From positions 1,545,758 to 1,606,062 of the forward strand of contig FN649741.1 in the NCBI GenBank assembly GCA_000310025.1: a DNA stretch of 60,305 nucleotides, given 5' to 3'. The DNA comes from Ectocarpus siliculosus (Eukaryota; Sar; Phaeophyceae; Ectocarpales; Ectocarpaceae). Of the stretch, positions 3,562 through 55,200 are shown one piece after another (position 1 is the stretch's first letter; every line of letters begins with the position of its first letter). The notes under the pieces were generated by a model that worked only from the letters and a program-made list of their open reading frames with translations, was not told the DNA's origin and searched no databases. Made by a program: the position numbers and the translations under genes.

Positions 3562-5061
3562 TCAGACCGCTCGGTACTGCGGTGCTGAAGCAAGGAATTC
3601 ACCGTAGGCAGCTGTGTTGGGGCGAACGAACAGTTCGACCAGCGGGTTCGCGCGGTGTTGCTTTGTTGCACCAATGTCTTTGAGCAACTCATCGAAGTGG
3701 CGGAAATGAAACGGAGCCACGCACAAGCCGCCGTATTCTTTGGCCACCGGTCTCTCCTCCCGCCGCCACTGTTGCATCTTGTCGATGTTGGCGTTCATCT
3801 CATCCGTGGTTGCCTGATTTCCGAGCTGTCCATCCGCAAAACGAACCAGCCAGTTTGCGACCAATTCCGCCGACAATACGGTGCAGAAACTGCTGTTGAA
3901 GCCAACGAACCCTAAATCAGGCAGGTCTGGGTTCACCGCGAAGCGGTAGAGACGATGAACGCCGTCATCATCGACCAGCTTGTGCTGTGCTTCCGCGGGC
4001 AGAAACGGGATGCCCTGTTTCCATCCAGTCGCCATCACCGCAACATCGCACGGGACCGTGTCACCGTTTGACAGGACCGCTGCGCCTTCTTCGTAGCGCT
4101 CGATCGATCCTTGAACCGCTTTGATCGTTCCGTCATCCAACGCTTCGAAGAAGCCAGGAGTGACGACGCCGATCGAGCAGGAGACGGTGTCTTCGATCGG
4201 CTCCGAGGGAACCATGTTGTGCTTCTTCAGACCAAGCTGGAGGGTCAGCACAGCCTCCAAGCCGCGGAAGTTGAACCAGATCAAGGGCTTCAAGAGCAGC
4301 CTGAGCGCGCGCCCGACCGGCGAGGGCAACCAGCCGTCGAACTGCTCCTCCTGCGCGCGCATGTAGAGCAGGTGCTTGAAGTTGATGCCGCCGATGAAGT
4401 ACGGCAGCCGCCAGACGTTCTTGCGGTAGACGATGGTGACCGACTTCGCGCCGTTGCTGGCGGCGTTGACAGCGATGTCCAACGCCGACTTCGAGCCGCC
4501 CAAGACCACGACGCGCTTTCCCCGGATAATCGACGGGTCGGTGTAGTCCGAGGAGTGCATGGTCGCTCCGCCCTGAGCGGTGAAGTCGCCCTCGCCCGGA
4601 TGAGTCGGGACGTTCTTCTCGGAAAACTGTCCGGTCGCAACGCTGACGAAGTCGAAGTCTTCTTTCGAAGCACTTTCCTTGTCGTCGCCTTCTTTAATCA
4701 ACGTCAGGGTCCACCCAGGTTGGCCGTCGGCCCTGCGCTCCATCGCCTCAACCTTCGTGCCGAGTCTGAACAGCCGCGCGACGTCGTGCTTGTCCGCGTA
4801 AGAATGGATGTAGGCGTGAACGTCTGGGGCCGCTGGCCATTCCGGCACCTTTTCGGGGTACGAGTGGTCGGTGAAACAGTAGAGATCCTTTGCCGATTGT
4901 GACCGGCAGTCGGGATAGGAGCGCGACGGCTCCCACACGCCTCCGAAGTCGCGGCTGCGCTCGAGCCCGTGGACATCGTGGCCGCGCTCGGCGAAAGCCT
5001 TTGCCGCGGCAATACCGCTGAAGCCTCCGCCGATCACGGCAACTCTCTTCTTCTGAGCCAT
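3562..5061 (-). CDS. flavin-containing monooxygenase, single exon
   Basis: A complete 499-residue flavin-dependent monooxygenase that would use FAD and NADPH to oxygenate a small molecule; the substrate cannot be read from sequence. The FAD Rossmann motif GGGFSG is at residues 11-16, followed by FGGVW at 39-43. A family-type F-x-x-x-G-x-x-x-x-H segment (FTAQGGATMHSSDY) covers about 160-173. The second dinucleotide (NADPH) motif LGGSKSALD is at 187-195, and the late ATGW motif lies in VAVMATGWKQ. Length is typical of the FMO/YUCCA-like group. There is no signal peptide or membrane anchor, so it is probably cytosolic. The start MAQKKRVAVIG puts the Rossmann strand right at the N-terminus, as usual. 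It is notable for having no intron while every other sizeable gene model here except the KEN-box ORF is heavily split, and for high GC; transfer from bacteria is possible but not shown. The family call is secure. Confidence 0.93.
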   Translation of the reverse strand: MAQKKRVAVIGGGFSGIAAAKAFAERGHDVHGLERSRDFGGVWEPSRSYPDCRSQSAKDLYCFTDHSYPEKVPEWPAAPDVHAYIHSYADKHDVARLFRLGTKVEAMERRADGQPGWTLTLIKEGDDKESASKEDFDFVSVATGQFSEKNVPTHPGEGDFTAQGGATMHSSDYTDPSIIRGKRVVVLGGSKSALDIAVNAASNGAKSVTIVYRKNVWRLPYFIGGINFKHLLYMRAQEEQFDGWLPSPVGRALRLLLKPLIWFNFRGLEAVLTLQLGLKKHNMVPSEPIEDTVSCSIGVVTPGFFEALDDGTIKAVQGSIERYEEGAAVLSNGDTVPCDVAVMATGWKQGIPFLPAEAQHKLVDDDGVHRLYRFAVNPDLPDLGFVGFNSSFCTVLSAELVANWLVRFADGQLGNQATTDEMNANIDKMQQWRREERPVAKEYGGLCVAPFHFRHFDELLKDIGATKQHRANPLVELFVRPNTAAYGEFLASAPQYRAV

Positions 5062-8000
5062 GAGGAGAACGCACCCCGAACCTGTTCAATGGTTGTGACG
5101 AAGCGCGCGAGCGACGAACGTTTACATGGCGGGCCAGGAGCTTCAATACTTGGTACTACAGCGGAGTCAAAGAGTAACAAAGCATTCCCAAGCACAGCGA
5201 GAGAGAGAGATCGCATCACTCTCAACTGATGTTCGCTTGGCAGGAAGAATAGGTAAACAATGCTACGTAGTGGCACCCATTCGCGCAAGTGTGAAAACAC
5301 CTCTCTGTTGAATGTGCGCGGAAATGGAAACGTGTTCCAACGTCGCCGGAAAACTGATTTATTCTCAGTGTGCGACCGAGGTAGACAGGTACACATTTCA
5401 TTCCTAATGAAGAAAACACGCGTTAAGACAACACCGTTCCGAACAGAATTTGACACAAATCGTGAACGGTTCGGCCAATGAGCCCCTCCCGGAAAGCATG
5501 CATACATGTCCATGGGAAAGAAGGCAGAGTGGAGTGTATCCCCGCTCGAGGAGGGTTTCGTGGGAAATTCAGCCGAAACTCTGCAAAAAAATCCCAAATT
5601 GTGAGGGCCGACAAGGGATGAAAGGAACTGCGAAAGGTGTAGACCCGATGTCAAGTGCTGCCACTCTCCGTACAGTCAGCAACCGTGTTTTGCAGGTATT
5701 ATGCATGTGGGATTGAATACGTTTGGCAGACTCTATGGGGACTACGATGGTTTGACAAACTAATCGGCGACGGGGAGAAACACACCAAGACACACACCAG
5801 TACCAGCAAGCATGTCATACTCTAAGCCATTTGGCAGCACTACCACGCACAACAAACACGCGCGCAGAGTCAGCACAACACATCGCACAATAACTGTGGC
5901 AGGGCCTTCGTTTATCAGCAGCTGATTCCCAGTCACAGATTTCCGGAAAACTGCGACTTGTCAGGCTTGCCAAAAGCGCAGCAGGTTGCCATTGACAAGT
6001 AGCAGCCCATTTTGCGAAGGAGCTGACAGCATGCGCCCCAGACGCATCAACCACGGATAACTGCTGGCCGGAAGGATGTCCGTAGATTCTCTGTGCTCGC
6101 CCCTCTTATTGCGTTCTCGTCGGGGGCGGATGTCTTTCTTACTTGCACTCTCCGATCTTCACTCAAAAAGGTACGGAGATCTCAACAGGACAACACAAGT
6201 TGCCCCGGGGGTAGAATTGCCCGGGGGTGACTCGGCGTTGGATTGGGGGGGGGGGTAGCGGGGCATGGTCAGTGGCAGGGGGAACTCAGAGGATCCTACA
6301 TGGCATGCAGCGCGCACGCAGGGGGGGCGGTATCTTTTTCGTCATACTTGTTGGCCATGGGCGATAGTTTTGGTAGCTGGCTGACGCTCACAAAACTCTA
6401 CAGGGCAGGCATCAACTTGAGACCGGGCGGTAACTTCCAGAACACGGCAACAAACGTCATCGTGGGCTTCGTGAACCAAAAGCAAGACGAATTTTAAGGC
6501 GATTGACCATAACGAATCACAGCAGTATGTTCACACTTCGTTGTAGCTTTGATCAGCCCGTCGCCCACATTCCTCTAACTGTAGTGATGTCACCACCACC
6601 ACTTTACACGAAACACAACGGGTGAGGCGGTCTTGTTGTGCGCAAGGTTCTCTTGTAACATGTTTGTTTCAATGCACACGACGGGTGTATGTGGGGCACG
6701 CTGCCGTCGAATAGCAGCGGTTATTTTCTGTCAAACTCTCCACCGTGCATTGGTGCTGCTGTTCGGTTTTTGCGACTTGAAGTTTGACGGTGCTATGCGG
6801 TGCCGTTAACCGATCGCACGGTTTTTTCCACGACACGGGTTTTTGTACCCCGTGATGAAACCGCGCGAACCGCGGCCTTGGTGCCCGGTCGAAGAAAACC
6901 GCAGAACTAATACGGTTATCGGCGACACCAGGACGAGTACCTATCTACAATTTGGTGGATGCGTCAGAATTTGTCCTCTCGCTGCGGTCCATTAACAAAA
7001 TGTAGATGTGTGCACATTGTGCTGTGCATGGAGGCCGCCAATGACATACTCCAACCTGGCGGCCAGAAAAACCCAGACACAAGAGCTATTTTTTCGTTCG
7101 CCATAATAGCTTCCCACAACACGCATAACAGCAGCCACATCCTCACGTGCCTCTACAGGTTGCTGTTGGCAACTTTGAAGTCCAAATAGTTCTGGCAGCA
7201 CCAGGCGGCTCATGATCACAACCCCAAATGAGTCCCTGCTGCACTCAGTTAGAGTTGACCTCGGCAACCAATTGCTCTCCCGCGCGAGCAGCTCGGACAC
7301 ATGCAGCTTTTGTATTTCCTACTCTGTGCGTGTGCAAGGAAAAGCTGTTACTTAACTGCGGTTTTTACCGCGGTTTTGGCGACGTAGTAGCTCAAACCGC
7401 ACCGTGATAAGAACGGCATCTACGGTTCCCTAAGAATCCCCGCGGGTTAAAACAGTAGTAGTTTTGTTTTCATCTCGAAATGTGACAGTGTGGTGCCGTG
7501 CCGTTTTGATGAGGTCTGTCCTCGCTAACGATTGTTCATGTGCAGGCATCATCTCAGGTGTTAGCCAGACTCCACCGTACACTGCAGATATATATGGCGG
7601 TAACTAGCCACCTGGGTAAACGCTATACGGTAGCTGGCCACCACGGTAATTTTGTCGTACAGTAACCAGCCACCAAGGTTATGCAAAGAGTTTTGCGTTC
7701 TTTGTTACGGTAACTGGTCACCACGGTTTAAATGTTTCTAGTCTCAAAGTTAACCAGACCACGGTACGTATTGCCCATTTGGTGTTGCATTTTTTCCAGT
7801 GTTTCTTAAGCGCGTGGTCACGGCACGATGATACTAATAACGCGCGCGGCACATTCACTAGAGCATCACGTCGGTCAACCGAACAGAGTTTTCGAAAACA
7901 AAAAAAGGTAAAACACCAAAAAATCTCAACATTATTGCAGGGGCATGCTCTCGCGGCGTCATCACGACGACGTAAGTCCAGCGGTACGCCAAGTAACAAT

Positions 8001-31257: not shown

Positions 31258-34200
31258 ATGTCTCAAAACAGGATGACGAGCAAAGGGAAGAAAGCGGCAC
31301 AGTCTGGCGCCAAGAGCAAAAAAGCCCCCGGGTTTGGGAAGGGACCAGCGGCTGGTGTGGCCAGTCAGTTGGCGACGTTTGAAGATGATGACATGTACCA
31401 AGAGCCGATTAAAAAGGTGCACACTTTCCGCTATGTAGTGAAACAGCTTCGCGAACTGTATGGTATATCACGTATGAGCGGTAGAGGGTGCTGAGGGAAC
31501 GGATGACATTCCCCCCCAAGTTTTATTCGACGCTGCTGTTGCGCACCCTTCATCTTCTCAACCTATGGAGAAGGTGGTGCGTCCTGCCAACCAGCTACAG
31601 CTGAGTGAAACGGAGATGAAGGAGGAGCACACACGGGTCCTAACGGCCAATGACCCTAACGGTGAGACCCCAGGGACTACGCGTCACTTCAAGTCGAGAA
31701 CGTAGTTTGTGCTGATGTGCGGGTTGCTGTGCTGTGCCAAGTGGGTGGCACTGTTGCTGCAGTATGTGGACCATAGGTGTTTATGCAACCCCCATTGGTT
31801 GTCCTATACCCCCCCAACCTCACTACACACGCCCACCCGATTTCGCCCTTCCCCTTGCGACTGCCTTCTGTTGCTCTCTAAACCTTGAAGTTCCCAACAA
31901 TATCAGCAAGTACAACTACAAGGATCACATGTATAAGATAGATCCTCCAGGGCCCGGTGACCACCTGGCGATGCATCTAGCTATTGATGGCTGGGCTCTC
32001 TTTCGCGAGGGCGACGAGGCCAAGCTGCAAGCGACGGCAGAGGAAAAGAGAAAGGCGGCGGCGGACGAGGCTAGGAAGGAGGCGCAGAAGCAGGCGAGAG
32101 AAGGGGGGGGGGGGCATGGGCAGGCATATGACGAAGAAGGTCTCCTGATTGTAGATGGCTCACCATTACCCTCGGGAAGAAGCGTGGTGTTGAAGGAGCC
32201 AGACTGACGTCGTGACGTGTTGGTCTACTCGCGCCGTAACTTGCGATTCGATCCGTAGCACAAGCTATGGGACAATATTTTTCTACGTGTGTCAAGCATG
32301 AGAGACCGATTTGGCTCCCTGGGGTGTTCTGTCGAACACCATGACTGTGGAAATTATTGTCGCTGCGCGAGAATCAGGTTAACCCAGGACCACTAGTGTT
32401 GCTGTTGCCGTCGTCGTTTATGTCGTTGCTGCCAACCGATTACCCTTGGCAACCAACCCACCAGGCTATCGAGGCGGGAGAAGAACCTGACCAGGACGCC
32501 GGTAATGAAAGCGGGAAAAACCAGTTCAACTACTCTGAGCGCGCCGCACAGACCTTCAACAATCCTATGCGGGAGAGAGGAGTAGTTACGGAACCGCCGC
32601 CAATGCTTTCTTTCAGAAACACCGTGGCGCAGTGGGAGATTTATGACTCGTACATGGCAGAGTACTCGGCACAGGTTTGTGCTCGTGCAATGAAGGAGCT
32701 GTTCAGCGCTGGTTCTAGCGCGATACATACACGATACTGCCGGCACTACCGAAATGTTGAAAGTGTTGTACTATCCGTGCGGCACACTAACGTTCGAGTT
32801 TTTCGTGTGCAGCCGTTGTTGGAAAGAGTGCTAGCTTTGGTGTCGGAAATTCGCGTCTCTCGAGGAGTTCAACTCTAGTATTAACCTTGAAAATTAGCAG
32901 CCTTGTGGAACGTCTATCCTCGTGTGGTTTTCGCGCGCACAAGGACCGGAATACATTATTTATTGAGAGCGGTGTCGGAGGATGTTGTTTGCAAACCTAG
33001 GACTTGGTCGAGTCATCGGTAGACTCCGGGCCGGTGAGGCAACAGGAAACAGACAAAAAAACTTCGATCTGCATGCTCTAACAGTCCCGTTTCTACTGCA
33101 GTTCAGACATGTGTCCATCACCACCCTCTTCATCGAAACCTACGTCGTGCTTGTGAATTTGCGTTTGCTTTCCATGGAGTACTGGACAGATGGCTGAACA
33201 AGAGGTCGAAAACAAGAAGAAGAGAGAAAAAGGTGAGGGAACGTGATTGCGTCCCTGATGTGTCTCGTGCCTCTTCTTGGAAGCTCTCGCACCCCAAGGC
33301 AACGTATTGCGGCTTGCTGTGATGCAGGTAATCTTTAGAAAGACAAAACCACGTTTAGAAGGTGCTAAAATATGCTTTGTTTTCTCTCCGACAGGCCATG
33401 CACAGAAGTTGAAGTCATCTTTGGTGCCGATTCATCGCGTCCTGTATAAATGTTCGAACCCCACGCAGAGGCCGCCGATGATGGGGCGGGCGGAGGGGGC
33501 CGGAACGAGGACGACATGGTTCACAGCGCCAAGATGGGAGGTGCCCTCAAGATTCTGGAGCGGATGGTAAACCAGAATGCGGAGGACGAGATCTTCCAAG
33601 ACTTCAAGTACTGGGAGGTGAGACCATCTAGCCCTTCCATTGCTTTCACCGGGTTTGCGAACGTACTAAGTGATAGGTTTTGCGATGTCGTACTCTGTCT
33701 GGATCTGTGTCTTCAGTTTCGACCACGAGACGTGCTCTCCGACCCAATTACCCAGCAGATTGCAAGCCTTCATGTTGAACGGTCGCTCCTGACGATCTTT
33801 ACCCCGCTACGTAGAGGCACGAGCATCAATCTGTTTGATGTGCCATGTCTTTCCTCGCCAGAATGCAAGCCATTGCTCCAACGCGTTGGTTCGATCGGCC
33901 CTAACACGCCGCTGTTTAGGACGCATCGGATCATTTCCGTGAGGGCGAGGGATCTTTGCTCCCCCTGTGGCGCTTCAGCACGGACAGGACCAAGAGGAAG
34001 CAGGTACGTTGCGGTGGCGCGAATCCTTCGGGGTAGGCTGAGTGAGTCGAAGCATTGAATCAGTGTTGCGGCCACGCGGCCGTTTGCTGGGCGTTGAACG
34101 GCCCCGACCACGCAAATGCCCCCGCACGAAGTTGTGCAGACTATTGGCCGAAGGCGTGGTGCGGTGAGACTTCCTGTCTACGGACGTCATGTTGCATGCT

Positions 34201-39033: not shown

Positions 39034-40428
39034 AGTTAGCTGTCCATGTTGCCACTCGGATCATGGGCTGGCGTTCGGCCAACTTGATGGTGCCGTGTTC
39101 GACTGTCGTATAGCCACTCTCGTCGACGGTTGGAAGCCGAAATGGTGATGCAGCCTGAAGGCTCGGAGTCCCCCCTCCGCCACACCGGGAGATCGGGCGG
39201 CGTACCGGTCCGCTGGTTTGGTGACGTCTTGGTTGCGGTTCTTCTACTGTATTTCTGAGTTGGTGCTTCCGGTTAGGTCCTTGCCCGTCGAGTTCTTTAT
39301 CTCGATATTCGCCGTGTACATACATGCAAATAGTCTAGTTAGTCTGTGTCTGTGTTTCGGCGCTCTGGCGCGTTCGGCGTTTGTATCTACTTTCGCCTAC
39401 ACTCGCCGTGAAACAGCCACTTAATAATTCTGTGCGTCTGTGTCCTCTTCGTTGTCTATTGCTAGACTTCTTTTCGTGTGCGTGCTTGATTTGCAGCGAA
39501 GAACCGATGACTATCCTCTTCGTATTATTCCATTTTTTCTGCAGTAGGGACCCAAGCAAAACCAACCCGACGCCATTTGATTTGTCTGGTCGGGCAAACC
39601 AAAGTCCATCAACATGCGGCCGTCTCTGGTCCGTTCATGTTGTTCATTTCGGCATCCATGAAAAACCATATATGGGCACCGCTTTGCTCTCTGTTGACTT
39701 GTTGTCTTCTCTGGTGAGAGCGGCCATGCTAGGAATGTATACGGCCGGCGGTTGTTACATCTCCATCCCATCAGATCTCGCCACAGGTGGACGAAATTGA
39801 TTTACATCAACAGTGACCCACGAACAATGATCCCCCACCACTATATTGGTGGTCGAGTAAATTATTTTGTGTGGGGTCGATAACCGTCACTCCGTGCAAA
39901 GGGGATGATCGCACCTCGTTGTGTTAAAATGGTCAAGCACCCTCGAGGTAGTTGCACAGTGCGTACAACTGTCTCTGGAAGTGAAAGCACCAGAAAATAA
40001 TTAAGTCATTCGAAGCTGTCATCCGTAGCAAGGAAATAAGCACAAGATGCCGAACACCCTTAGCAGGATGCAGCGCACCCTCCATGCGACTCGCCGAATA
40101 CCTCGAGGTGCTTCGCACCTGGTGATGTGAGAGGCTGATCCGGTGAGAACCCGGTGTGCTCCGTCCCGGCTTTGTAGGGATGCGAGGCCAATGGTCTAAC
40201 GACTACGGCCTGCACGACTATGAGTACCCCCCCCAAAAAAAAAAACACGACAAAGCGTCCTGCTGCTTCTTACAAAGAAACGCTAGATTACCCGCACCCG
40301 CGATACCTATTTCTACAAAACGCTACACCAGAGCAGCAGCAGCAGCAGCAGCCGCAACAGCGGCGGCAGCAGAACTGACAAAAAGAGAAAGACGGTGGAA
40401 CTGGGTGCAGGCCGGGATACATTCCCTA
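39034..40428. other. convergent intergenic region
   Basis: The 3' flanks of DNAI1 (plus) and the Pellino-type gene (minus). I see no gene. The right part holds one copy of a dispersed repeat (40013-40232) and an AGC run at about 40335-40360. Confidence 0.5.
40013..40232 (+). repeat. dispersed repeat B, copy 1
   Basis: About 215 bases match 49617-49830 in the same orientation with roughly 85% identity by eye, from agctgtcat through gactatgagtac and a C-run. Shared words include gaacaccctt, tcgccgaatacctc, tggtgatgtgagag and ccggtgagaacccgg. No coding capacity. It may be a SINE or MITE-like element, but I see no clear tRNA promoter boxes or terminal inverted repeats. Confidence 0.8.
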
Positions 40429-43400
40429 TTATTGCACAAAAATCATCTTGCTGTACGGACGCTCCCCGTCCTTGCACTGCAGGGGCTTGGCGCAGTAGGG
40501 GCAGATGGGGCGGTACACCGCATCTGGCGGGGCGTTGTTTGGCATCGCCAGCCTGGACCATCGTTCGGCCACCTATTGCGTGATTTTCAGTTTCAGTTCG
40601 CGGTATTGTTAGAAAAAATTGATTAGGTTACACGAGTTTTTTCTTTGTCTTTGTTTCGGTCCTTGCACTAAGACAGGCCATTAATCGACGGACCACGTAC
40701 TACGGCTATGGATGTGGACATCGTACATGTGTACGCTCTCCAAAATAGGGCGAGACGCTAAGAAGAGGCTTATTCCGCTCAAGACAAAAAAAATTGCTGG
40801 GTGTGCGCTTCTGGAACCTCATGGCCTGGCCGCGAAACCAACAAACGAGCACTATTTCTATACCATATGATATACCCGTATCCCGGGAAAGTATCGACCA
40901 CCACGAAGTTGAGCCTACTACTACCCAACGCCCTACCTCCAGACTGGCGGCGTGCCCACAAGGGTTGAACACGACCGTGGGTACTTCGCGATCGATCGCT
41001 GAACACCAGCCAAACTTTATCTGATCATTGTCGCGCCGCACAAACGATAGAGACAGCGACAGGTTGGCGGCAAGGCGGATTTGAATTCGAAAAAATGTTA
41101 GCACCCTGGACTTGATCGGCGGTTCTTTTCAGCGCAGTATTGACGAAGATCGTGTCCCCATCACAGCTTTTATTACGACCATGGGCTTGCATGAGTTCAT
41201 GGCTATGCCGAAGAGTCTGGCAAGTAGTCCAGGATGCTGTTTCATTCGGTAGTGACACACACTATTTGTGACGGGTTGGAGCGGGTACGAGTGTTTATTG
41301 ACGACGTGGAGATCGGATATTCTCGCAATAGTGCGGAGCGCGTGGAAGATCTGGAGAGATTTTCGAGTGCATGACGAAGTTCAGTCTGAAGCTTGCGCCG
41401 AGAAAGCTTGCGCCGAGAAAGCACATCACTTGGGGGTGACAGCGGTGACGGTCTTGTGTTATCAGGTCAAGGCCGAGGGGATCGAGCCGTGTCCAAAGAA
41501 TTTGTTGAAACCGACGCTGTTGCGATTGCCGATGCCGACGAATGTTGGTCAGCTGAGGTCGCTATTTGGTCCTCCGAGACAAAAAAGGGTCGGGTCATTC
41601 GGAACCCGTGACTGGCATTTTAGAAGACGACATCAAACCATTGGACTAACTCGTCGAGATCCAGGCTGAACACTTAGGGTGTTTTGTTCCTGGGACTCTG
41701 GATACTCCTGACCAGAGAACGGGTGACGGAAAGACTCGTCTGAGACCCTGAAACGTTCTGCAGGGTGTGGATGATGAGTGAGAGAACGAAGCGGAATGCA
41801 CATTGGGTGGATAGCAGCGCTGGCGAGGGGAGTCACCCTCCTCGGAGTTAAAGTGTCGGATCCTGGACCCCACGACTAACTTTTTTAGAAGCCGGAATCA
41901 AACCATTTGAGACGGCTTCTGAATATATAACCGTGTGCGAGACTCATTTTTCTGTCCAACCTCTTGTCGGGGATGCTGACCAGGACGCAAAGAACGACTG
42001 CCTGCTTGGCGTCGGCGGCTTGAAGGTGCCTCCAGCATGGACAGTCTTGACCGGAGAAGAACGGTCGGCTCGTACAACAAGCTTCTACTGCTGTTAAAAT
42101 GAACTCCTTTCTCGACGTGAACACCATCATTATCCACAACTAACCGAAGGCGGCGATCCTGTACGATTTCATTCCATTCTCTGCCATTCCCCGACTCTCC
42201 CCTTCTTCTTTACGTTTGGCAGTTGATTTCACTGTACGGATATATACTAGTGATTGGATCAGAACGGTGGTGGAATAACAAATAAATAGCACGGGGAATG
42301 TTCGAGGGTTCTATGCACGAACGAACGCACTGACTGCTGCTGCTGCTGCTGCTGCTGTGCCTAGAACTTGGGTACATTTGACTGAGGAAGGCTGGGGAAC
42401 TAGGAAATAGACATGGCAGGTTTCATTTGCATGCAGAGATAACTGAACATCTCAAATATAATTATTCGTATGGCTGTTGCTGCTTATGAACATGCGCCGG
42501 CTGATTGCGTCCACGGTTTTCGGATGGTTCAAGTCTAATAAAGGATTATAGTCTATACTGTTACCCCAATCTGCGTTGTGTTATGTCGATAATGTGCATG
42601 TAGCCAACCCCTCTCGCTCAATGTTTGGCACGATTCGGATACTATACATGCCCAAATTGAAGAAGTTCGTTAGTGCATTTTGCGTCACTCATCTTGGCCA
42701 CCACGCTAGACATACACCATGCAAGACCTTGACAAATCTTCAACGCAATGGTCTTACTGCTGCTGTTGTTGGCCACACACACACGTACCCCCCCCCCCTA
42801 CCTCCCTTCTCCCCACTGCTTCACTTGGGTACCTTACATGGGAACGGCTTTACTTAATTTTATTCGGACAGACCGGCGTGCAGTCCCCGAACTTGTTGTT
42901 CCGAGAAAACTCATCAGAAGTCATTGTTACAGTGAACAGGAGGACAAACAACACAGAGGAAATCGGAATCGCACACACGAAAGCGACGTAGCTGCTGTTA
43001 TCCCAGAGGTACTTTCCCGTCTACTCTTGTCGGTACTCCCTCACGCACCTCTACGAGCGGGCCCGGCGTTCGGCACATTGGACATGGGCCCCAAGCGAGC
43101 TGCTTTGCGTAGCCTTGGACGTGTCCACATGCCGGGAAGATGTGCGGCACGAGAGCCTTCCCCTGGTGGAGGAGAAGGAGGCAACCAAGTATTGCAGCGC
43201 GTACTCAGCTGATCGCGCTAAGCTAGGGAGAAGGATCTTTACACTTCGCCAAACAGCGAGGGGCGCAATCAGTTCGACTGGGATAATAATCTCGTAGGAA
43301 AACAAACTCCTTACGTTTTATCTTGTTGCTTGCCGACAACGGTCACGCGGTGCCAATGATGAGGCACTTTAACGCACGTCGATCCAGCCCCCCCTCTCAA

Positions 43401-46388
43401 AAACAACACGCTTTCGAACACACAACGCCTATCGCTACGTAGTCAAATGATGGCTTCATTCAGTCTACGGTCTGCGGCCCCCCTCTTCACCTCGGTGCCT
43501 CCGTCGTCTCCCTGGGCATCGTTTCTTTCGCCGACGTCTTCCGCGCCAACCGCGCCATCAGCAGCAGTGGTCGTGGCGGCCGTAGCAACTGCAGCATCGC
43601 CGCTAGCACCGCCGGTCTCGGATGACGTCCATGATGTAGGCGGTGGTTTCCACGGCTTGAACTGCAGCGTTTGGAGCTGGACTGGGCACTGCGGTTTACG
43701 ATCGTTCAGGAGTTCGATAACCTGGGAGGGTTGCACTCCCCCTAGTCTTGCCATTTGTTCTGCAGACTCGTACAACATCTGTCGGAGGCAAAGACACAGA
43801 GTCGAAACAGGTAAGAAGGTTACGACACGTTACGTTGACAGGACGAAGGCGATTAATACCGACGCACCCCAGAGGGCGAACGAGAAGCATGAACACAACT
43901 CGGCCATGACCCAACGACAGAAGGTGATGGGTGACACCATCATTCCAAGTCTCGCGATTTCTCAGAACACGGAAAACAACGGCACGCTGGTGCTCCTGCC
44001 GTTTCAATGTCAGGGGAGTGGCCATGCTAAGCTTCGATGTTCACGGTGCATCACTTTTCGGGATGTTAGGGCTGCTTCTTCTGTACACGCTCCGCGTCCT
44101 GCACGTACCTACCGCTCACAGACCCGGGAGGTAGTCACTTCTTTCTCCCCGGTTCTGCTGTGCTGACGACTGTCCGTGATCGGAGGGTTCTTTCGAGTCT
44201 AAAAACAGTCCGGGACTATCCCTCCCGACAAATTACTTCTATTATCGCGGTCGTTCCATGCCCGACGCCCTCCACCGGCGTCACGATTCTTCAATTTGAA
44301 AAATGTACAGAATAACGCAGCTACCTGTAGCCCCACCTACCCACTCCCCCCCTCGCTAGATATACAGCACCCCTCCGTCAGCTTCACCTGTACGCCGCCG
44401 ATGTCGATAATTGTCCCCGAAGTGAGTTCGTTGGTTTCGCCGGGAACGAGGTCGCCGATTGTGTCTAGGCGGCCAGCCGCGCGCAGCCGGCGAATTGCGC
44501 CCGCCACGGTCACCTTGGTTCGAATAGGTCGACGAAGTCGACGGCGTGGGTTGCGGCGACAACGGTACACGGGATAGTGTGATTCTGTGGGACCGAAGAA
44601 AGTCTTTGAAAGCAAGTAGAAACTGCAGCAAAACACCTCCCACTGTCCTTGTGACGAGGTCATCGAACTCCCGGGGGCTAACAGTTTGTCTCGTCGGTCA
44701 TGGCTTGGTGCATTGTACATAGGGATCTCCATGGATTGCCAACTTCTGCCTCAAAAGATTCAAGGTTGGTAACACGAATTCGTGAAGACGGCTTGGATAG
44801 CCATAGGCAAGTGGGTGGTACGAAAGCGTTCAATCGTAATCTACCAACAACTTATGTCTGTCTTCGTCAATTGTGTCATTTGTCTCTGACCTTTTCCGAG
44901 CGATATTACATACTACCACAACCATTTTCCTCTTGTTTTGTCTGGCCGTCCTTCGTTTTGTCCCGGTTGTCCCACACCGTCTCTCGTTTCACCTCTTTGT
45001 CCATTCCATTCTCGCCTGCCTTTTTTTTATTCAGTTGTATTTGTTCATCTCTTCTTTCGGTGTCCTGGTCAAGCCCAAGGAAAATGCTATGTAGAGATAC
45101 GCGTGTTCTCTCTGCCCCTCTTTTGTGCCTGTCGTAGTACGGGACCATGCTAGAAATGGGGGCTGCGACAGTTGGAACAGCACGCGCGACTCTCGCAAAC
45201 GAGCACGCATGTAATGTTGTGGATGTTTCGGTGCCGACTTCTAGGAAAGTGAAAACACCGCAGCTTTCTCGGGCGACAAACATTTCCCCGCGGAAACCCA
45301 CCCCTTAAGGACAGAACGTCCTTCCTTCAATACTCGCTTACCTCTCTCCACTCGCCTATCTCCGGTTTGAGAATGCGGATCCCAAATGGTGTGACGGCGT
45401 CCCACTCCCCGTTGTCCTCCAGCCACTTCGGCGACGACTCGGGGAGGGTCAAACATTTCCTGCAACGTTCGAAGAGGGGACGGTGTGTGTGTTAGAGTGA
45501 GCGAACCTAGACCCTACAGGTCTACAGTATGTGCCAAGCGACACGCTAGGCAGCAGTTCATGCTCTCCACATCCTCATACGTCTCCGTTGCAATATCGCT
45601 TCCACACGCTCGCTTGCGTGAACCTTACCTCGAGTTGAAGCCCGCTGTGAATATCCTGCACCGGTGCGGGGGACTCCTGTCGACCAGGAGCCGCACGGCG
45701 TACCGGCTGACCGGTCCGCACACCTTCCCGCCGGGCTTGGGCTGGTGCAGCGGCCCCCTCACCGCGAAGTCGTTCTCGGCACTCTGCATCCTCCCGAGCT
45801 GAAACATGTCGCAGCCATCGTCCGCCTGGCATGGAACATCCACCACATCCTCCGCTCCCCCCAGTGTTTCCGCTGGAGCCTGCGTAGTTGACGCGCGCCC
45901 TCTGCCAGCGCGTTCGGCTGCTTCCCTCTGCTGCGCGGAAAGCGACAGCTGTAGCCGATAGCCGGCGGCGTGGCTTTGGCTCTCCCCTTGCGCGCTCTTC
46001 AGCAAGAAACTTCTCCCTCCCCGATTTTGGCCGTCACCGTCACCAGCGCCGCTGCTCACACCGCAGTTCCTTGGCAACCTAGCGTTCGTGCCGCCGATCC
46101 CACCCTCCCCACCGCGCGCTCTGTGGGGCGGGTTCCTCCCGCCGCAGGACTCGGTCGGTCGCGCCTCCGGTGTCTTGAACGTCACTTGCTTCTCGCAGCG
46201 GCCGCGCGGTACATTCTTCGTTGACCTGACACTGCCACCTTCGTCGTCGTGTTCATTTCTATCGGCAGGTTTGACTAGGGTCTCTTTCGTGCGGATATTG
46301 CGACTGGGGCTCGCCATTCCACCTTGGCAGCACGGAGGGCTGCTGCCGACTGTATCGTTCTTGTGGACGGCACCAACACCGTCATGAA

Positions 46389-46424
<36 letters not shown>

Positions 46425-48706
46425 TACCACTCCTGCCGCCGACATGAACTCCGTTCGGTGACTCGCGCCGGGCGAGGATAAATCTTGCGTTCTTCGGGCC
46501 GACGCGGTGCCACGTCGAGTCGCGCACAGAAAACTCCTGCGTGCGTGTCAGGACCGAAATGTTGGCCGAAATCAGAGAGGTCACCAAGAGGACAAAAATG
46601 CTGCCGAACAGGTCGTCGGCATGTCCGAGCGACGGGAAGACGACATGCCGTAGAGTGTTGGAGGAGAACAAGGTTCCACGAAGGTGAGAATAGATTAAAT
46701 AGAAAAGGAAAATTGATCTCCCCAGTGCCTCACTTTGGGCTTGATCCGTGTCAGTATCATCGATACTCTATATCATCGTCCATGTTTTCCGAGGGGGGCA
46801 CGGTGTAGCGGTGGTCCACGCAAGCAAGCGTTATTGCAGGAACTACGGAGAGACATGTGCAGTATGGTCAAGTTTTCATCTTCTCTGTTGCCCCGACTTG
46901 CTTACTTTGTATCCAAGCACCACCAGCTGGCCGTAGCTATTGTTCGCCCCGGAAGTGACTACGCGGATAGCCTGTCGGAGGAGATGTCTGGTGAGTACGG
47001 GGCATGAGCGGTAAAAAAAAACATTAGGGCGTGCGGAAAACGGCGAGATCGAGTCTGGTCAAGCCTGTAGATCGAGCAGCTTGAGTGTGCATTCCGCTAG
47101 ACAGACGAGCTTCGAGCTCATACTACGCCGTCGACACTTGCTGATTGGGATGATAACTTTGGGCGTTAATATTTCTACTCCAAATGCATGAGAGAACGTT
47201 TTCCTTCTGGGCACTTCGCTCCATTTTCCGCCTGTTCGAGGAAGCCGGCACAAGGCTGACAAAGTAACAACATCCGGTGACCGCTCGAATGACCAAACAA
47301 AGCTCTCACTGAATACAACGGATTAAATTGGAAGTTTCTTCCCGAGGATTGTCTGCATGGGTTTCGACTCACCTGACATGTTTTTTTCCTCCGCCTTGAC
47401 CAGCGGCTACCCCTCCGACCCCTTCCACCGTGGGTGCTGCCGAGAGCACACCCCCTTCTCCCGGAGGAGGTCGGCACAGGTTCGCTGGTGGCTCCGGAGA
47501 ACAGCACCTGCAACCAGGAGGAAAGGAAGATCTTGCATTCTTCACTGAACTGGAAACCAAAGGCAACCATCTTGTCTCGCTGCTAGCGTCGCTACCCCTC
47601 GTGGTGTTGGTGATAGCTCCGATTGTTTCTCTCCAAGTTCGACACGCCTCCGACAGCGCCAAGGCCGCCTCCGCCGCTTGCGTCGCTTCTTCCCCTGATA
47701 CTGATGGGTGAACAACCTCTTTGCTAGGATGGTGTCGCGACCAGAAAAGTGATTGCTTTTCCGCACAGAACGTTCCGCTGCTCCGGATTCCCCCGAGAAC
47801 AGCACGAAGGTTAGGGTCTGCTAGTCGAGCGGCTGTCATCTCGCTGTCAAAGAGCTGGGCGAGGAGACAGGTGGTAGCATCTGCAGAGAGGTCGAGTTTG
47901 GATCTCGCCAAACAGACCAGCTCGGGCAGACCCGTTTTATCTATCTCCTCCAGCTTTGCTTCGCGCGAGATCATCAAGGCCAAACACACCCGAGCGGCCC
48001 CCAACGCCACGAAGTTGTCGACGACCACCCCGCGTCGGAGAATGTGGTCGTGTATCTCGGCAATAAGCTGATCGTCCTTCTCCGTAATTATTGGTGTCGG
48101 GGGTGATAAAGACGGTGCTGCAGAAGATGCCGCCCCCGCCGTCGCTGGTATCTTGCTTTCGTCTCCGCCCACCGTGGGCGAGTTGTCAATATATGCAGCC
48201 GATGCAAGTCTTCTTGCACAGCTCTTTTCACCACCACTTTCTCCTCCGGTCGCGTGGCCTGTTGATCTCGATCGGCAGTGAACACTCTTAGGAGCGGAAG
48301 GCCGGGACTGTGTCCGAAAAGTCACGCCTTCCACAATCGATGTCAGAGATGACGACAAATCATCAGGAGGAGTGCCCGATCTTAGTGTTCCAATAGCGGT
48401 AGACTCGTGCGCTGGTCGTCCCCTCGACCTAGGACATGAAGCAGCAGTCGCGCAGTAAATCTCATAAACACCAGCGTCTCGAGTTCGGTCTGCTTCTGTT
48501 GCTTCGGGCTCTATCGGCCTAATCACATGGTGGTTATGAATGCCACCATCAGCGTGAAGAGATGTCGTCGTGCTGGTTCGGTTCGATGGGGCGACGACGT
48601 CAACCGCAGCAGTGGCATCAGGTGTCTTCCGTGAGAAAAATGGAGTGGCGGTGCACCGCCCGAAGCACCATCGCATTTTCTTCCTCCAGACTTCAAGCTG
48701 CTCCAC
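40429..48706 (-). CDS. Pellino-type E3 ubiquitin ligase with a long N-terminal extension
   Basis: Exons on the minus strand: 48706-47373, 46987-46906, 46536-45629, 45459-45342, 44603-44388, 43778-43491, 43162-43049, 41020-40937, 40572-40429 (TAA). All phases agree; about 1095 residues from the first exon listed, whose 5' side is unresolved (it starts at an acceptor). Pellino blocks in order: YGQLVVLGY; ARFILARRESPNGV; DMFQLGRMQSAENDFAV; VSRYAVRLLVDRSPPHRCRI with FTAGFNSR; WDAVTPFGIRILKPEIGEWR; NELTSGTIIDIGGVQMLYES; DRKPQCPVQLQTLQF; then the RING-like part with ACGHVQGY, WGPCPMCRTPGPLVE, VVFNPCGHAASLEVAERW and ICPYCAKPLQC. All the paired Cys/His positions survive. In animals the FHA core binds phosphorylated IRAK-type kinases and the RING-like domain drives ubiquitin transfer. 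Odd: a roughly 240-residue low-complexity insertion with poly-Gly splits the FHA part, and the first exon (about 444 residues, helical, ARM-like in its second half) may be a separate gene. The Pellino identity rests on many ordered blocks and is strong; the N-terminal fusion is moderate. Confidence 0.88.
41100..41620 (+). mobile_element. degenerate Ty3/gypsy reverse transcriptase fragment
   Basis: In broken frames the plus strand shows reverse-transcriptase blocks in the right order: STLDLIGGSFQRSIDED, ITAFITTMGLHEFMAMPKSL, then after a stop VRVFIDDVEI (the catalytic x-x-DD block), and KAEGIEPCPK with LPMPTNVGQLRSLFG. Stops and frameshifts interrupt it, and a 17-base duplication (agcttgcgccgagaa) sits at about 41389-41421. 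No LTRs, protease or integrase were seen; related debris may continue to about 42100. It lies antisense in the intron between the two RING-like exons of the Pellino-type gene. A dead copy. Confidence 0.85.
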
Positions 48707-49616: not shown

Positions 49617-49830
49617 AGCTGTCATACGCAAGGAAGTAAGCACAAGATGACGAACACCCTTTTAGCAGGGTGCAGCGCACCCTTCATGCGATTCGCCGAA
49701 TACCTCACGGTTCTTCGCGCTTGGTGATGTGAGAGCCTGGTCCGGTGAGAACCCGGCGTGCTCCGTCCCGACCCAGTATGGTCTAACGTCTACGGCATGC
49801 ACGACTACTACTACTATGAGTACACCCCCC
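49617..49830 (+). repeat. dispersed repeat B, copy 2
   Basis: Same-orientation partner of 40013-40232. It differs by substitutions and small indels, notably a loss of about 13 bases after gctccgtcccg and an expanded ctactacta run. The pair flanks the Pellino-type gene. Confidence 0.8.
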
Positions 49831-52284: not shown

Positions 52285-55200
52285 TCAGACCGAGAAAGAT
52301 GGCGTTGAGCGAGTCTCGGAGAGACTCGGAGTAATCGCCTCCTCCCGCAACTTTCGCTTGTTGGCCTCGTCTATGCGCTTCGCGTTGAGCATGAGCGGGT
52401 ACGGCAACAAGTGGGACAGCATGATGATGACGATCAGGGTCTCCGGCCAGTCGGTGTAGTCCCACACCCACGAGATCACGTACGGCACGATGCTCGCTCC
52501 GAAGTTAAGGCCGAACATCACCACCGACATGCCCATCTCCGAGGGCATCGTCACCCGGTTGTTGAGGTCGTAGCAGTAGCCCACGGTCGGCCCGTTGTAG
52601 AGCCCGTACGCCGCGATCCCGGTCCACAGGACAAACGCCGAGGACTGGAACACTAGGATTGCCGCCGCCGCCGCCGCACCGCACAGGAACAGGATGGTGG
52701 AGTGCCGGTACAGGCGCGGGAGGGTGAGGTGTCGCTGGTCCTGCAGACCCGCGAGACGTCCGATGGTAATGGCCGTCCACAGGACAACGATAAGGAGCTC
52801 CGCGTGCGATTCGTCGATGACGTCGGTGTCGTCGACGTAGCTCTCCAGGTACGCGGTGGCGCCCACCTGCAGTGAAATAGGGTTTGGGCAGTGTTGGGGG
52901 CACACGGGAGGTATTTAGCTGGTAGCTCCAGCCAACCAAGCAAGACATGTGGTGGTCATCGCCTTGAGTGCGTAGCCGGGTTTAAAGCTGTTGGAGAAGC
53001 TAGCAAGTGGAGCCAGGACTACTCGTGGTGTGAATAAATTGTGTTGTGTGTGTGGGGGGGGGGACACGTCATGGTATGTGTGGTGGGGAGGTCATGAGCT
53101 CATTATCACAACCCTTCTTCAAGCATGGCTGGTTGTTGGATCGACACAGCTGGAGCTCTTGAAACGAACGGCAGGGTGCATGTGAGAACGGAAGACTGCT
53201 GTGGAGTCTAACGAGAGACACCGCGGGTCTTTGCTGCTGACTTAATACCATGCACAACTTTACCAATACAAGGAGGAAAAGCTTAGACACCAACACAACT
53301 ACTAGGCCTGTCAGGGGACACCTCGCAACCCGCAAGACCAACCTCTACGCGAGGTCAATATTCGCCAAGTCAAGGCACCAACATGTGGTTGTATTCCGAG
53401 GCTACCCCCCCTCCCAAAAAAGAAGAGAACAATACTATAACAAAGCGCCCCCCCTCACAGCGCTCGGGTAAAACGATCCTCCTCATGACGACACAATCAA
53501 AATGGCTGTGAATCTTCGTCTGGGCAGACGAACAAAACAAATTTCTGCTCTGGCCGTGGACTAGCTACTGCCGGTCCCAGTAAGACGTGCTGTAACGTTC
53601 GACGTTCGCTCACAAGCTCAAAGCGACACTTCGCCCAGTCTTTGTTTGCGAGAGAATAAAAAAACTGGAACCAGTCTTCACGAGAGAAAAAAAGACTGGA
53701 AGGCAAACACCACTGCGGCCCTTGTACATCGGGCGCCCGCACGCCGCGGGCGAAACAATTCATCAGGTCCCCATGATGCCACGGCAAAAAAAGGGGGAGT
53801 CCTCTCACCTTGCCGCCAATGAGGCAGAACACCATGCCGCTGATGTGGAACTCGATCTTGTACCTGCGGTAGAAGGCGGCCATCTTGCAAATGCTCGTCG
53901 AGCTTTCCCCCGGCACCCCCACGTTTTCCTCTCTGCGCTCCGGCATTTTCTTCCGCTCCTGCAGAAACGGGAGCAACTTGTGTCAAAAAAATATCAGTAT
54001 CAACTAATATAAGTGTTCTCTTGAATACAACACAGCAGTATACAATGTCACATCCATCCATGAGCGATTTCAGTAGCACAAAACAATACCCGTTTCAGTA
54101 TATGCCGTGACATGGCACACCAACGTTTGGCAGGTGCCTAGGATATTAATTGAACACAGCACTAGAAGAAAAAAAACGGACAAACTTTGAACGCGAACGA
54201 ACGCAAATAATAATAAAAAAAACTCACCTCGAGCAGACCCTCGTACTTTTCTGGGGCGGGCAGGATGATCATGAACACCGCCGTCGCGCAGCTCACCGCC
54301 GACAGGATGACGTACTGGACAAAGAGCGAACCGGTCAGGTAGCCGATGAGCGGTACGAGCGCGCCCGAGATGCCGAAGACGACAGTGTTGGCCCCCAGCC
54401 AGGGCCCAGCCTTCGCCCCGTGCAGCTTCCGGGTCATGATCTGGCAGCCCGTGTCCGTGATGGCCGTGCAGAGGCCGAGTACGAAGAAGGAGAAGTGGAG
54501 GGTGTACACGGAGGTGATGAACGGCATGTAGATCAGGACCGACGTCAGGAGGAGCAAGATGATCGACATGACGTTGTTCCCCCGCATCCAGAGGTACAGC
54601 TTGGACGAGACCACTGCTCCGAGGACCGCTCCGACGCCTCGAGCGATGAACACGGACCCGACCTGCGGAGGAGGGGTAGATTGGCGGGGGGAACCGAACG
54701 TGACCGCAAATTAGAGATGGCACACCGACCCTATCTTGGCGGGCGAGAGGTTATACCCCACACGGGGGGTGAGATAGCGCATCAGGCTGGAAACGTGAAA
54801 GGAAAGGAGCGACTCAAGCCCCAAGGAAACGGCGACGGAGAAACGCAAGCGAGAGCACGAACACAAGTGACGAAGCTCTCGAGGCTGACGATGATTGGTG
54901 TGGTATTTATCCGACACGCGATGCACCCCAAGAGAAAATCTTGCGGTACGGAACCCGTCCGCGCTGCTGCGCTGCTCTGCTGGAAGGCGTGACGATGCCC
55001 GGCACGACCAAAAAAAAGAAAAGAAATCCATACGTGATGGCCTGTGAGCAGGACACCGGTCGCGTCTAGATTTACGAGTCTTTAAGTTCACACGTTGGTT
55101 GGGGTTGAACAGACGAGATTTCGCTAATGTCCTCGCCCTCTCGTTCCCAGCAGGGCTAGAACTCGGAAAAAAAAATACCATGAAAATACGCACGAGACAG

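What the first reader, a model, noticed from the sequence alone, without database searches (positions are those of the whole stretch)
40429..46987. Pellino E3 ligase outside animals
Eight exons of matching phase encode, in order, the FHA-like blocks and the complete RING-like Cys/His pairs of Pellino (CGHVQGY, CPMCRTPGP, NPCGH, CPYC). Pellinos are best known as animal Toll/IL-1 receptor pathway ligases that bind phosphorylated IRAK kinases. An alga that makes one must use it on other phosphoproteins, which would point to an older, more general phospho-dependent ubiquitin system or to lateral gain.
Basis: partly seen in the sequence, partly recalled or inferred. Interest (0 to 1): 0.85.

Follow-up and report, generated by a model that had tools for sequence, protein, structure and literature searches.

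The report
Pellino ubiquitin ligase in an alga
A photosynthetic alga carries an intact-looking gene for Pellino, a ubiquitin ligase known mainly from animal immune signalling, although searches of its genome found no clear trace of the Toll-type immune pathway in which Pellino works in animals.

Summary
The minus strand at 48676-40429 carries a spliced gene whose joined exons match both Pellino domain models over cut-off (FHA 125 bits, RING 66-69 bits). Six of eight unjoined reading frames hit Pellino models alone. The closest solved structures are Pellino 2 and 1, with 34.6% identity to Pellino 2 over 188 aligned columns. All eight Cys/His of the RING-like pattern are present. The gene is single copy and shares its contig with 29 of 87 light-harvesting matches, so animal contamination is very unlikely. 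No TIR or Death match reached a cut-off.

Three corrections. Only three of five residues called essential for phosphothreonine binding are kept: T187 and N188 are Pro and Phe, so phospho-dependent binding is uncertain. And a brown-alga Pellino is already in print: a kelp transcriptome paper lists PELI among genes raised in males under white light.

Ancient origin against lateral gain cannot be decided here, because no collection of eukaryote genomes could be searched.

The parts
47373..48676 (-). candidate 5' exon (ATG at 48676, donor after 47373), 434 aa N-terminal extension of no known family
   Evidence: Open frame of 445 aa ends over a GT donor whose phase fits exon 1; no Pfam match at E<=10; GC by codon position 0.586/0.598/0.521, unlike exons 1-8 at 0.649/0.544/0.701; could belong to another gene
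46906..46987 (-). exon 1: SYGQLVVLGYK, start of the FHA domain
   Evidence: No Pfam match alone; weak phmmer stretch to YGELVVLGY of Pellino 2, 2.9 bits; GT-AG
45629..46536 (-). exon 2: long low-complexity insert, then the FHA core with the R106, S137 and R138 equivalents
   Evidence: PF04710 47.2 bits for the uncut frame; about 200 residues lie between the two matched stretches where Pellino 2 has about 33
45342..45459 (-). exon 3: FHA core; carries Pro-Phe where Pellino 2 has T187-N188
   Evidence: PF04710 16.1 bits alone; residue mapping
44388..44513 (-). exon 4: end of the FHA core
   Evidence: PF04710 13.8 bits alone
43491..43778 (-). exon 5: linker with RKPQCPV block, then low complexity
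   Evidence: Aligned to ARPQCPV of Pellino 2 in the joined protein; no Pfam match alone
43049..43162 (-). exon 6: RING-like part 1, CGH and CPMC (donor may instead lie after 43045)
   Evidence: PF20723 19.3 bits alone
40937..41014 (-). exon 7: RING-like part 2, CGH (may instead start at 40998)
   Evidence: PF20723 13.0 bits alone; both junctions tested joined, 68.9 or 66.3 bits
40429..40572 (-). exon 8: RING-like part 3, CPYC, and stop codon
   Evidence: PF20723 22.8 bits alone, over its 22.6 cut-off

Best explanation
This is an unbroken, single-copy, intron-bearing nuclear Pellino gene of a photosynthetic alga. Its protein most likely works as a RING-type E3 ubiquitin ligase: the C-terminal CHC2CHC2 domain binds zinc and a ubiquitin-charged E2, and the N-terminal FHA domain brings in the substrate. 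Shown here: the domain architecture, all Cys/His of the RING-like pattern, single copy, and three of five phosphothreonine-site residues. Inferred: zinc binding, ligase activity, substrate choice and regulation. The substrates cannot be Toll-pathway IRAK kinases if that pathway is absent, as the searches suggest. I put about 55% on phosphothreonine-guided binding through the kept Arg and Ser, and the rest on an altered or phosphate-independent FHA surface. The best hint about context is from a kelp, where PELI is raised in males during gamete formation together with flagellar genes.
For: Both Pellino Pfam models over cut-off in both splice models; 6 of 8 uncut frames hit them alone; best solved-structure matches are Pellino 2 and 1 at 2.2e-26 to 1.2e-23; C-G-H, C-P-M-C, C-G-H, C-P-Y-C all present, the pattern described in PMC4484250 and PMC8860249; no internal stop in 3162 nt of the nine-exon model; one locus in the genome; 29 light-harvesting matches on the same contig; PELI in the male white-light set of S. 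latissima.
Against: T187 and N188 of the phosphothreonine site are Pro and Phe. The 5' end is uncertain: the upstream exon has no known domain and a different GC pattern by codon position. Exons 1 and 5 hit no model alone. The exon 6/7 junction is ambiguous. No transcript of this species was available. The kelp assignment is a KEGG label whose sequence I did not see.
Confidence: 0.82

Rival explanations
1. It is a Pellino by descent but a repurposed one: the FHA no longer binds phosphothreonine and the protein is a scaffold or a phosphate-independent ligase. (This overlaps with the best explanation on descent and differs on mechanism.)
For: T187 and N188 equivalents are Pro and Phe; long low-complexity stretches within the FHA region and in the linker.
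Against: R106, S137 and R138 equivalents and all Cys/His of the RING-like pattern kept; an unbroken frame in the nine-exon model.
Confidence: 0.35
2. Lateral gain: the gene came into the algal lineage from an animal, directly or through a virus, and was then domesticated.
For: In the passages and listings seen here the family is described from animals, one insect poxvirus and, as a label, a kelp; single copy here.
Against: Identity to human Pellino 2 is 34.6% over the FHA core and start of the linker, against 47% between worm and fly and 40% between worm and human quoted in PMC8860249 (not the same stretch, so only a rough comparison); eight introns; GC of the locus 0.541 against 0.536 for the window; a kelp also has PELI; no relative found in IMG/VR or among bacteria and archaea, though these searches reach close relatives only.
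Confidence: 0.15
3. Contamination: the contig stretch is animal DNA in an algal assembly.
For: The family is known chiefly from animals.
Against: The gene lies at about 1.59 Mb of contig C16, which carries 29 light-harvesting matches at 0.10-0.28 Mb; it is flanked by copies of a repeat dispersed over many contigs of the assembly.
Confidence: 0.02

Closest known systems
Human Pellino 2 and Pellino 1 (PDB 3EGA, 3EGB, 9IF9)
   Same: FHA then RING-like order; 34.6% identity to Pellino 2 over 188 columns of FHA core and start of the linker; R106, S137, R138; RING-like Cys/His pattern
   Different: T187-N188 replaced by Pro-Phe; about 200 residues where Pellino 2 has about 33 in the N-terminal part of the FHA region (probably the wing, not tested); long low-complexity linker before the RING-like part; possible 434 aa N-terminal extension
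Schistosoma mansoni Pellino (PMC4484250, passages)
   Same: A Pellino kept in an organism where the Toll pathway is reported missing
   Different: An animal; keeps all five phosphothreonine-site residues, binds human IRAK-1 and causes its ubiquitination
Saccharina latissima PELI (PMC6742357)
   Same: A Pellino label in a brown alga, so possibly an orthologue
Melanoplus sanguinipes entomopoxvirus Pellino (PMC10383966, passages)
   Same: A Pellino outside an animal genome; 27.6% identity to Pellino 2 within the FHA is quoted
   Different: Its RING part is truncated; here it is complete

Membership tests
Pellino | Pellino FHA domain (PF04710) | tested here: met
   125 bits, cut-off 25
Pellino | Pellino RING-like domain (PF20723), C-terminal to the FHA | tested here: met
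   68.9 or 66.3 bits by junction, cut-off 22.6
Pellino | CHC2CHC2 pattern (two CGH, two CPxC) | tested here: met
   Read in exons 6, 7 and 8; pattern
Pellino | Phosphothreonine-site residues R106, S137, R138 | tested here: met
   All three conserved in the alignment
Pellino | Phosphothreonine-site residues T187, N188 | tested here: not met
   Pro and Phe. A functional feature of studied members; it lowers the claim of phospho-binding, not that of descent
Pellino | E3 ligase activity | not testable with these tools
   Needs protein
Toll/IL-1R pathway Pellino | TIR, Death and Rel-homology partners in the same genome | tested here: inconclusive
   0 TIR at E<=1, control rang in 2 of 14 genomes, over cut-off in 1; 0 Death at E<=1, control rang in 2 of 14, over cut-off in none; TIR_2 one match below cut-off, E 0.74; RHD 0, but its control rang nowhere; split exons can hide a domain

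The most novel reading that the evidence does not exclude
Pellino is an ancient FHA-RING ubiquitin ligase that predates animals and was recruited to Toll signalling later; in brown algae it belongs to the male-gamete and flagellar programme, and its FHA domain, with Pro-Phe in place of Thr-Asn, reads a different ligand from the IRAK phosphothreonine motif.
Probability: 0.2. Interest if true: 0.68.

Novelty: new member of a known kind. Interest (0 to 1): 0.42.

Why it matters
Pellino is usually described as an animal immune ligase tied to IRAK kinases. A complete copy in an alga without a detectable Toll pathway means either that the module is older than that pathway or that it moved between distant lineages. 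It also offers a natural variant at the phosphothreonine site that could separate the ligase function from IRAK binding. The kelp expression record gives a concrete place to look: male gametophytes during gamete formation.

Tried and rejected
Viral origin: a 352 aa joined query found no pattern match in IMG/VR (a single protein finds close relatives only). A CGHV(H/Q)GY DNA pattern gave 15 loci; I read all 15 in the matched frame by eye and compared them by tblastn, where 3 of 15 gave weak matches (E 0.27 to 0.91) around the motif itself; none looked like a Pellino. Bacterial origin: 19 pattern stretches in the GTDB collection, none confirmed by tblastn at E<=1e-3.

Mobile unit flanked by direct repeats: 120 nt direct repeats (87% alike) lie at 40060-40179 and 49662-49781, on both sides of the gene, but the element is dispersed: all 40 scored candidates match (the query itself is one of them), out of 1764 first-look candidates. 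Not special to this gene.

Upstream helical region: a 163 aa stretch of the candidate 5' exon was folded without an alignment and gave mean pLDDT 46.5; too poor for a fold search, which I did not run.

With 'choanoflagellate' 0 papers; with 'non-metazoan' 0; with 'dinoflagellate' 4, of which the one dinoflagellate paper has the word only as an author name in a reference; with 'sponge' 100, 20 listed, none judged to be on Pellino outside animals by title; with 'brown alga' 4 and 'kelp' 5, only PMC6742357 relevant by title. Two mixed-term searches listed 20 papers each of 1,190 and 2,151: one held the word, again PMC6742357, and none did. A search with evolution, protist and FHA domain listed 20 of 76 and led to the helminth paper and two reviews. 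KEGG number K11964, recalled as that of PELI, gave seven papers, none on the topic by title. Public protein databases were not searchable, so annotated non-animal Pellinos may exist there.

Full report
What is there. On the minus strand between 48676 and 40429 lies a spliced gene. Its last eight exons (46987-46906, 46536-45629, 45459-45342, 44513-44388, 43778-43491, 43162-43049, 41014-40937, 40572-40429) join in one frame and end in a stop codon. All eight introns of the nine-exon model are GT-AG and its 3162 nt coding sequence has no internal stop. I chose the sites for GT-AG and phase, so this shows that a consistent model exists, not that it is transcribed.

Is it Pellino? hmmscan of the joined protein gives PF04710 Pellino_FHA at 125 bits and PF20723 Pellino_RING at 68.9 or 66.3 bits, by exon 6/7 junction; the other Pfam matches listed are below their cut-offs. 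Since I chose splice sites with an animal Pellino in mind, I also scanned the eight uncut stop-to-stop frames: 6 of 8 hit a Pellino model alone, two of them over the curated cut-off; the frames of exons 1 and 5 hit nothing. The six-frame genome search, which knows nothing of my splicing, gave one PF04710 match, over cut-off, in exon 2, and one PF20723 match, below cut-off, in exon 8. Of 15 PDB sequences listed at E<=1, the first three are Pellino 2 and Pellino 1 (2.2e-26 to 1.2e-23); the other 12, at E 0.062 or worse, align only to query residues 35-115, which include the glycine-rich stretch.

How alike. Over 188 aligned columns of the FHA core and the start of the linker, 65 are identical with human Pellino 2, or 34.6%. 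PMC4484250 (passages) names R106, S137, R138, T187 and N188 as essential for phosphothreonine binding. With an offset of four, the PDB chain reproduces all five letters, and the alga has R, S, R, P, F. The change lies inside exon 3, away from any splice site. The same paper gives the RING-like pattern as CHC2CHC2, and PMC8860249 (passages) as two Cys-Gly-His and two Cys-Pro-X-Cys; all are present here. Between the first weak FHA stretch and the core the alga has about 200 residues where Pellino 2 has about 33.

Gene ends. The open frame just upstream (445 aa) runs into a donor after 47373 in the right phase and offers an ATG at 48676. It matches no Pfam family at E<=10, its GC by codon position differs from the other exons, and a 163 aa helical part folds with low confidence alone. 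I treat it as the probable but unproven first exon.

Whose genome. The assembly (189 Mb, 492 contigs) has 87 PF00504 light-harvesting matches, 29 of them at 0.10-0.28 Mb of contig C16, which also carries this gene at about 1.59 Mb. The organism is therefore photosynthetic and the gene is very unlikely to be a stray animal contig. That it is a brown alga is my reading and was not tested. The gene is single copy: the seven matches of a 298 aa query all lie in this locus.

Pathway. TIR (PF01582) and Death (PF00531) gave 0 matches at E<=1, but the Death control rang over cut-off in none of 14 genomes; TIR_2 gave one weak match below cut-off; RHD gave none, and its control found none either. These are exon-by-exon searches, so absence is likely for TIR and open for the others. 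Flatworms are a precedent for Pellino kept without the Toll pathway (PMC4484250, passages).

What is in print. PMC6742357 (outline, passages, section 16 and the first part of section 15 seen) lists 'PELI: pellino' among KEGG genes raised in male Saccharina latissima gametophytes under white light, in a set with IFT, BBS9 and axonemal dynein genes such as DNAI1. The word occurs once in its main text. [quoted passage not shown] So a brown-alga Pellino, expressed, has been recorded. In nine searches of the library with the word Pellino I saw no study of Pellino outside animals and their viruses besides this listing (long result lists were seen only in part, by title).

Neighbour. A frame at 32345-32875 on the plus strand matches flagellar dynein intermediate chains (Chlamydomonas-type 78 kDa chain 59.7 bits, dynein axonemal intermediate chain 1 59.2 bits) and its core has one match in the genome, itself. 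It lies beyond the 3' end of the Pellino gene on the opposite strand, so the two are in converging orientation; whether another gene lies between them was not checked. DNAI1 and PELI share the same kelp male set; that two neighbours do so may be chance, and that the kelp genes are the same as these was not tested.

Verdict. The gene is a new member of a known kind, with a changed phosphothreonine site. The claim of phospho-dependent action is weakened, and the choice between ancient origin and lateral gain is open. The low identity, the introns and the kelp record lean towards an old presence in the lineage.

Noticed in passing
window 32345-32875 (+): Exon of a flagellar (axonemal) dynein intermediate chain gene with one match in the genome, converging with the Pellino gene; DNAI1 and PELI are both in the male white-light gene set of a kelp.
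   Followed up: partly
window 40060-40179 and 49662-49781: Direct repeats, 87% alike, on both sides of the gene; a short dispersed element, 39 further copies among the 40 scored of 1764 first-look candidates.
   Followed up: yes
G000 contigs C92, C232, C488: 18 light-harvesting matches with the same score (127.6 bits) crowd on three contigs (10, 3 and 5 matches), which may be a recently amplified array.
   Followed up: no
window 3565-5085 (-): Long 507 aa open frame of a flavin-binding monooxygenase (PF00743, 131 bits).
   Followed up: no
window 52288-54710 (-): Two frames that look like exons of a major facilitator superfamily transporter (PF07690, 19.4 and 32.3 bits, both below the 33.4 cut-off).
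   Followed up: no
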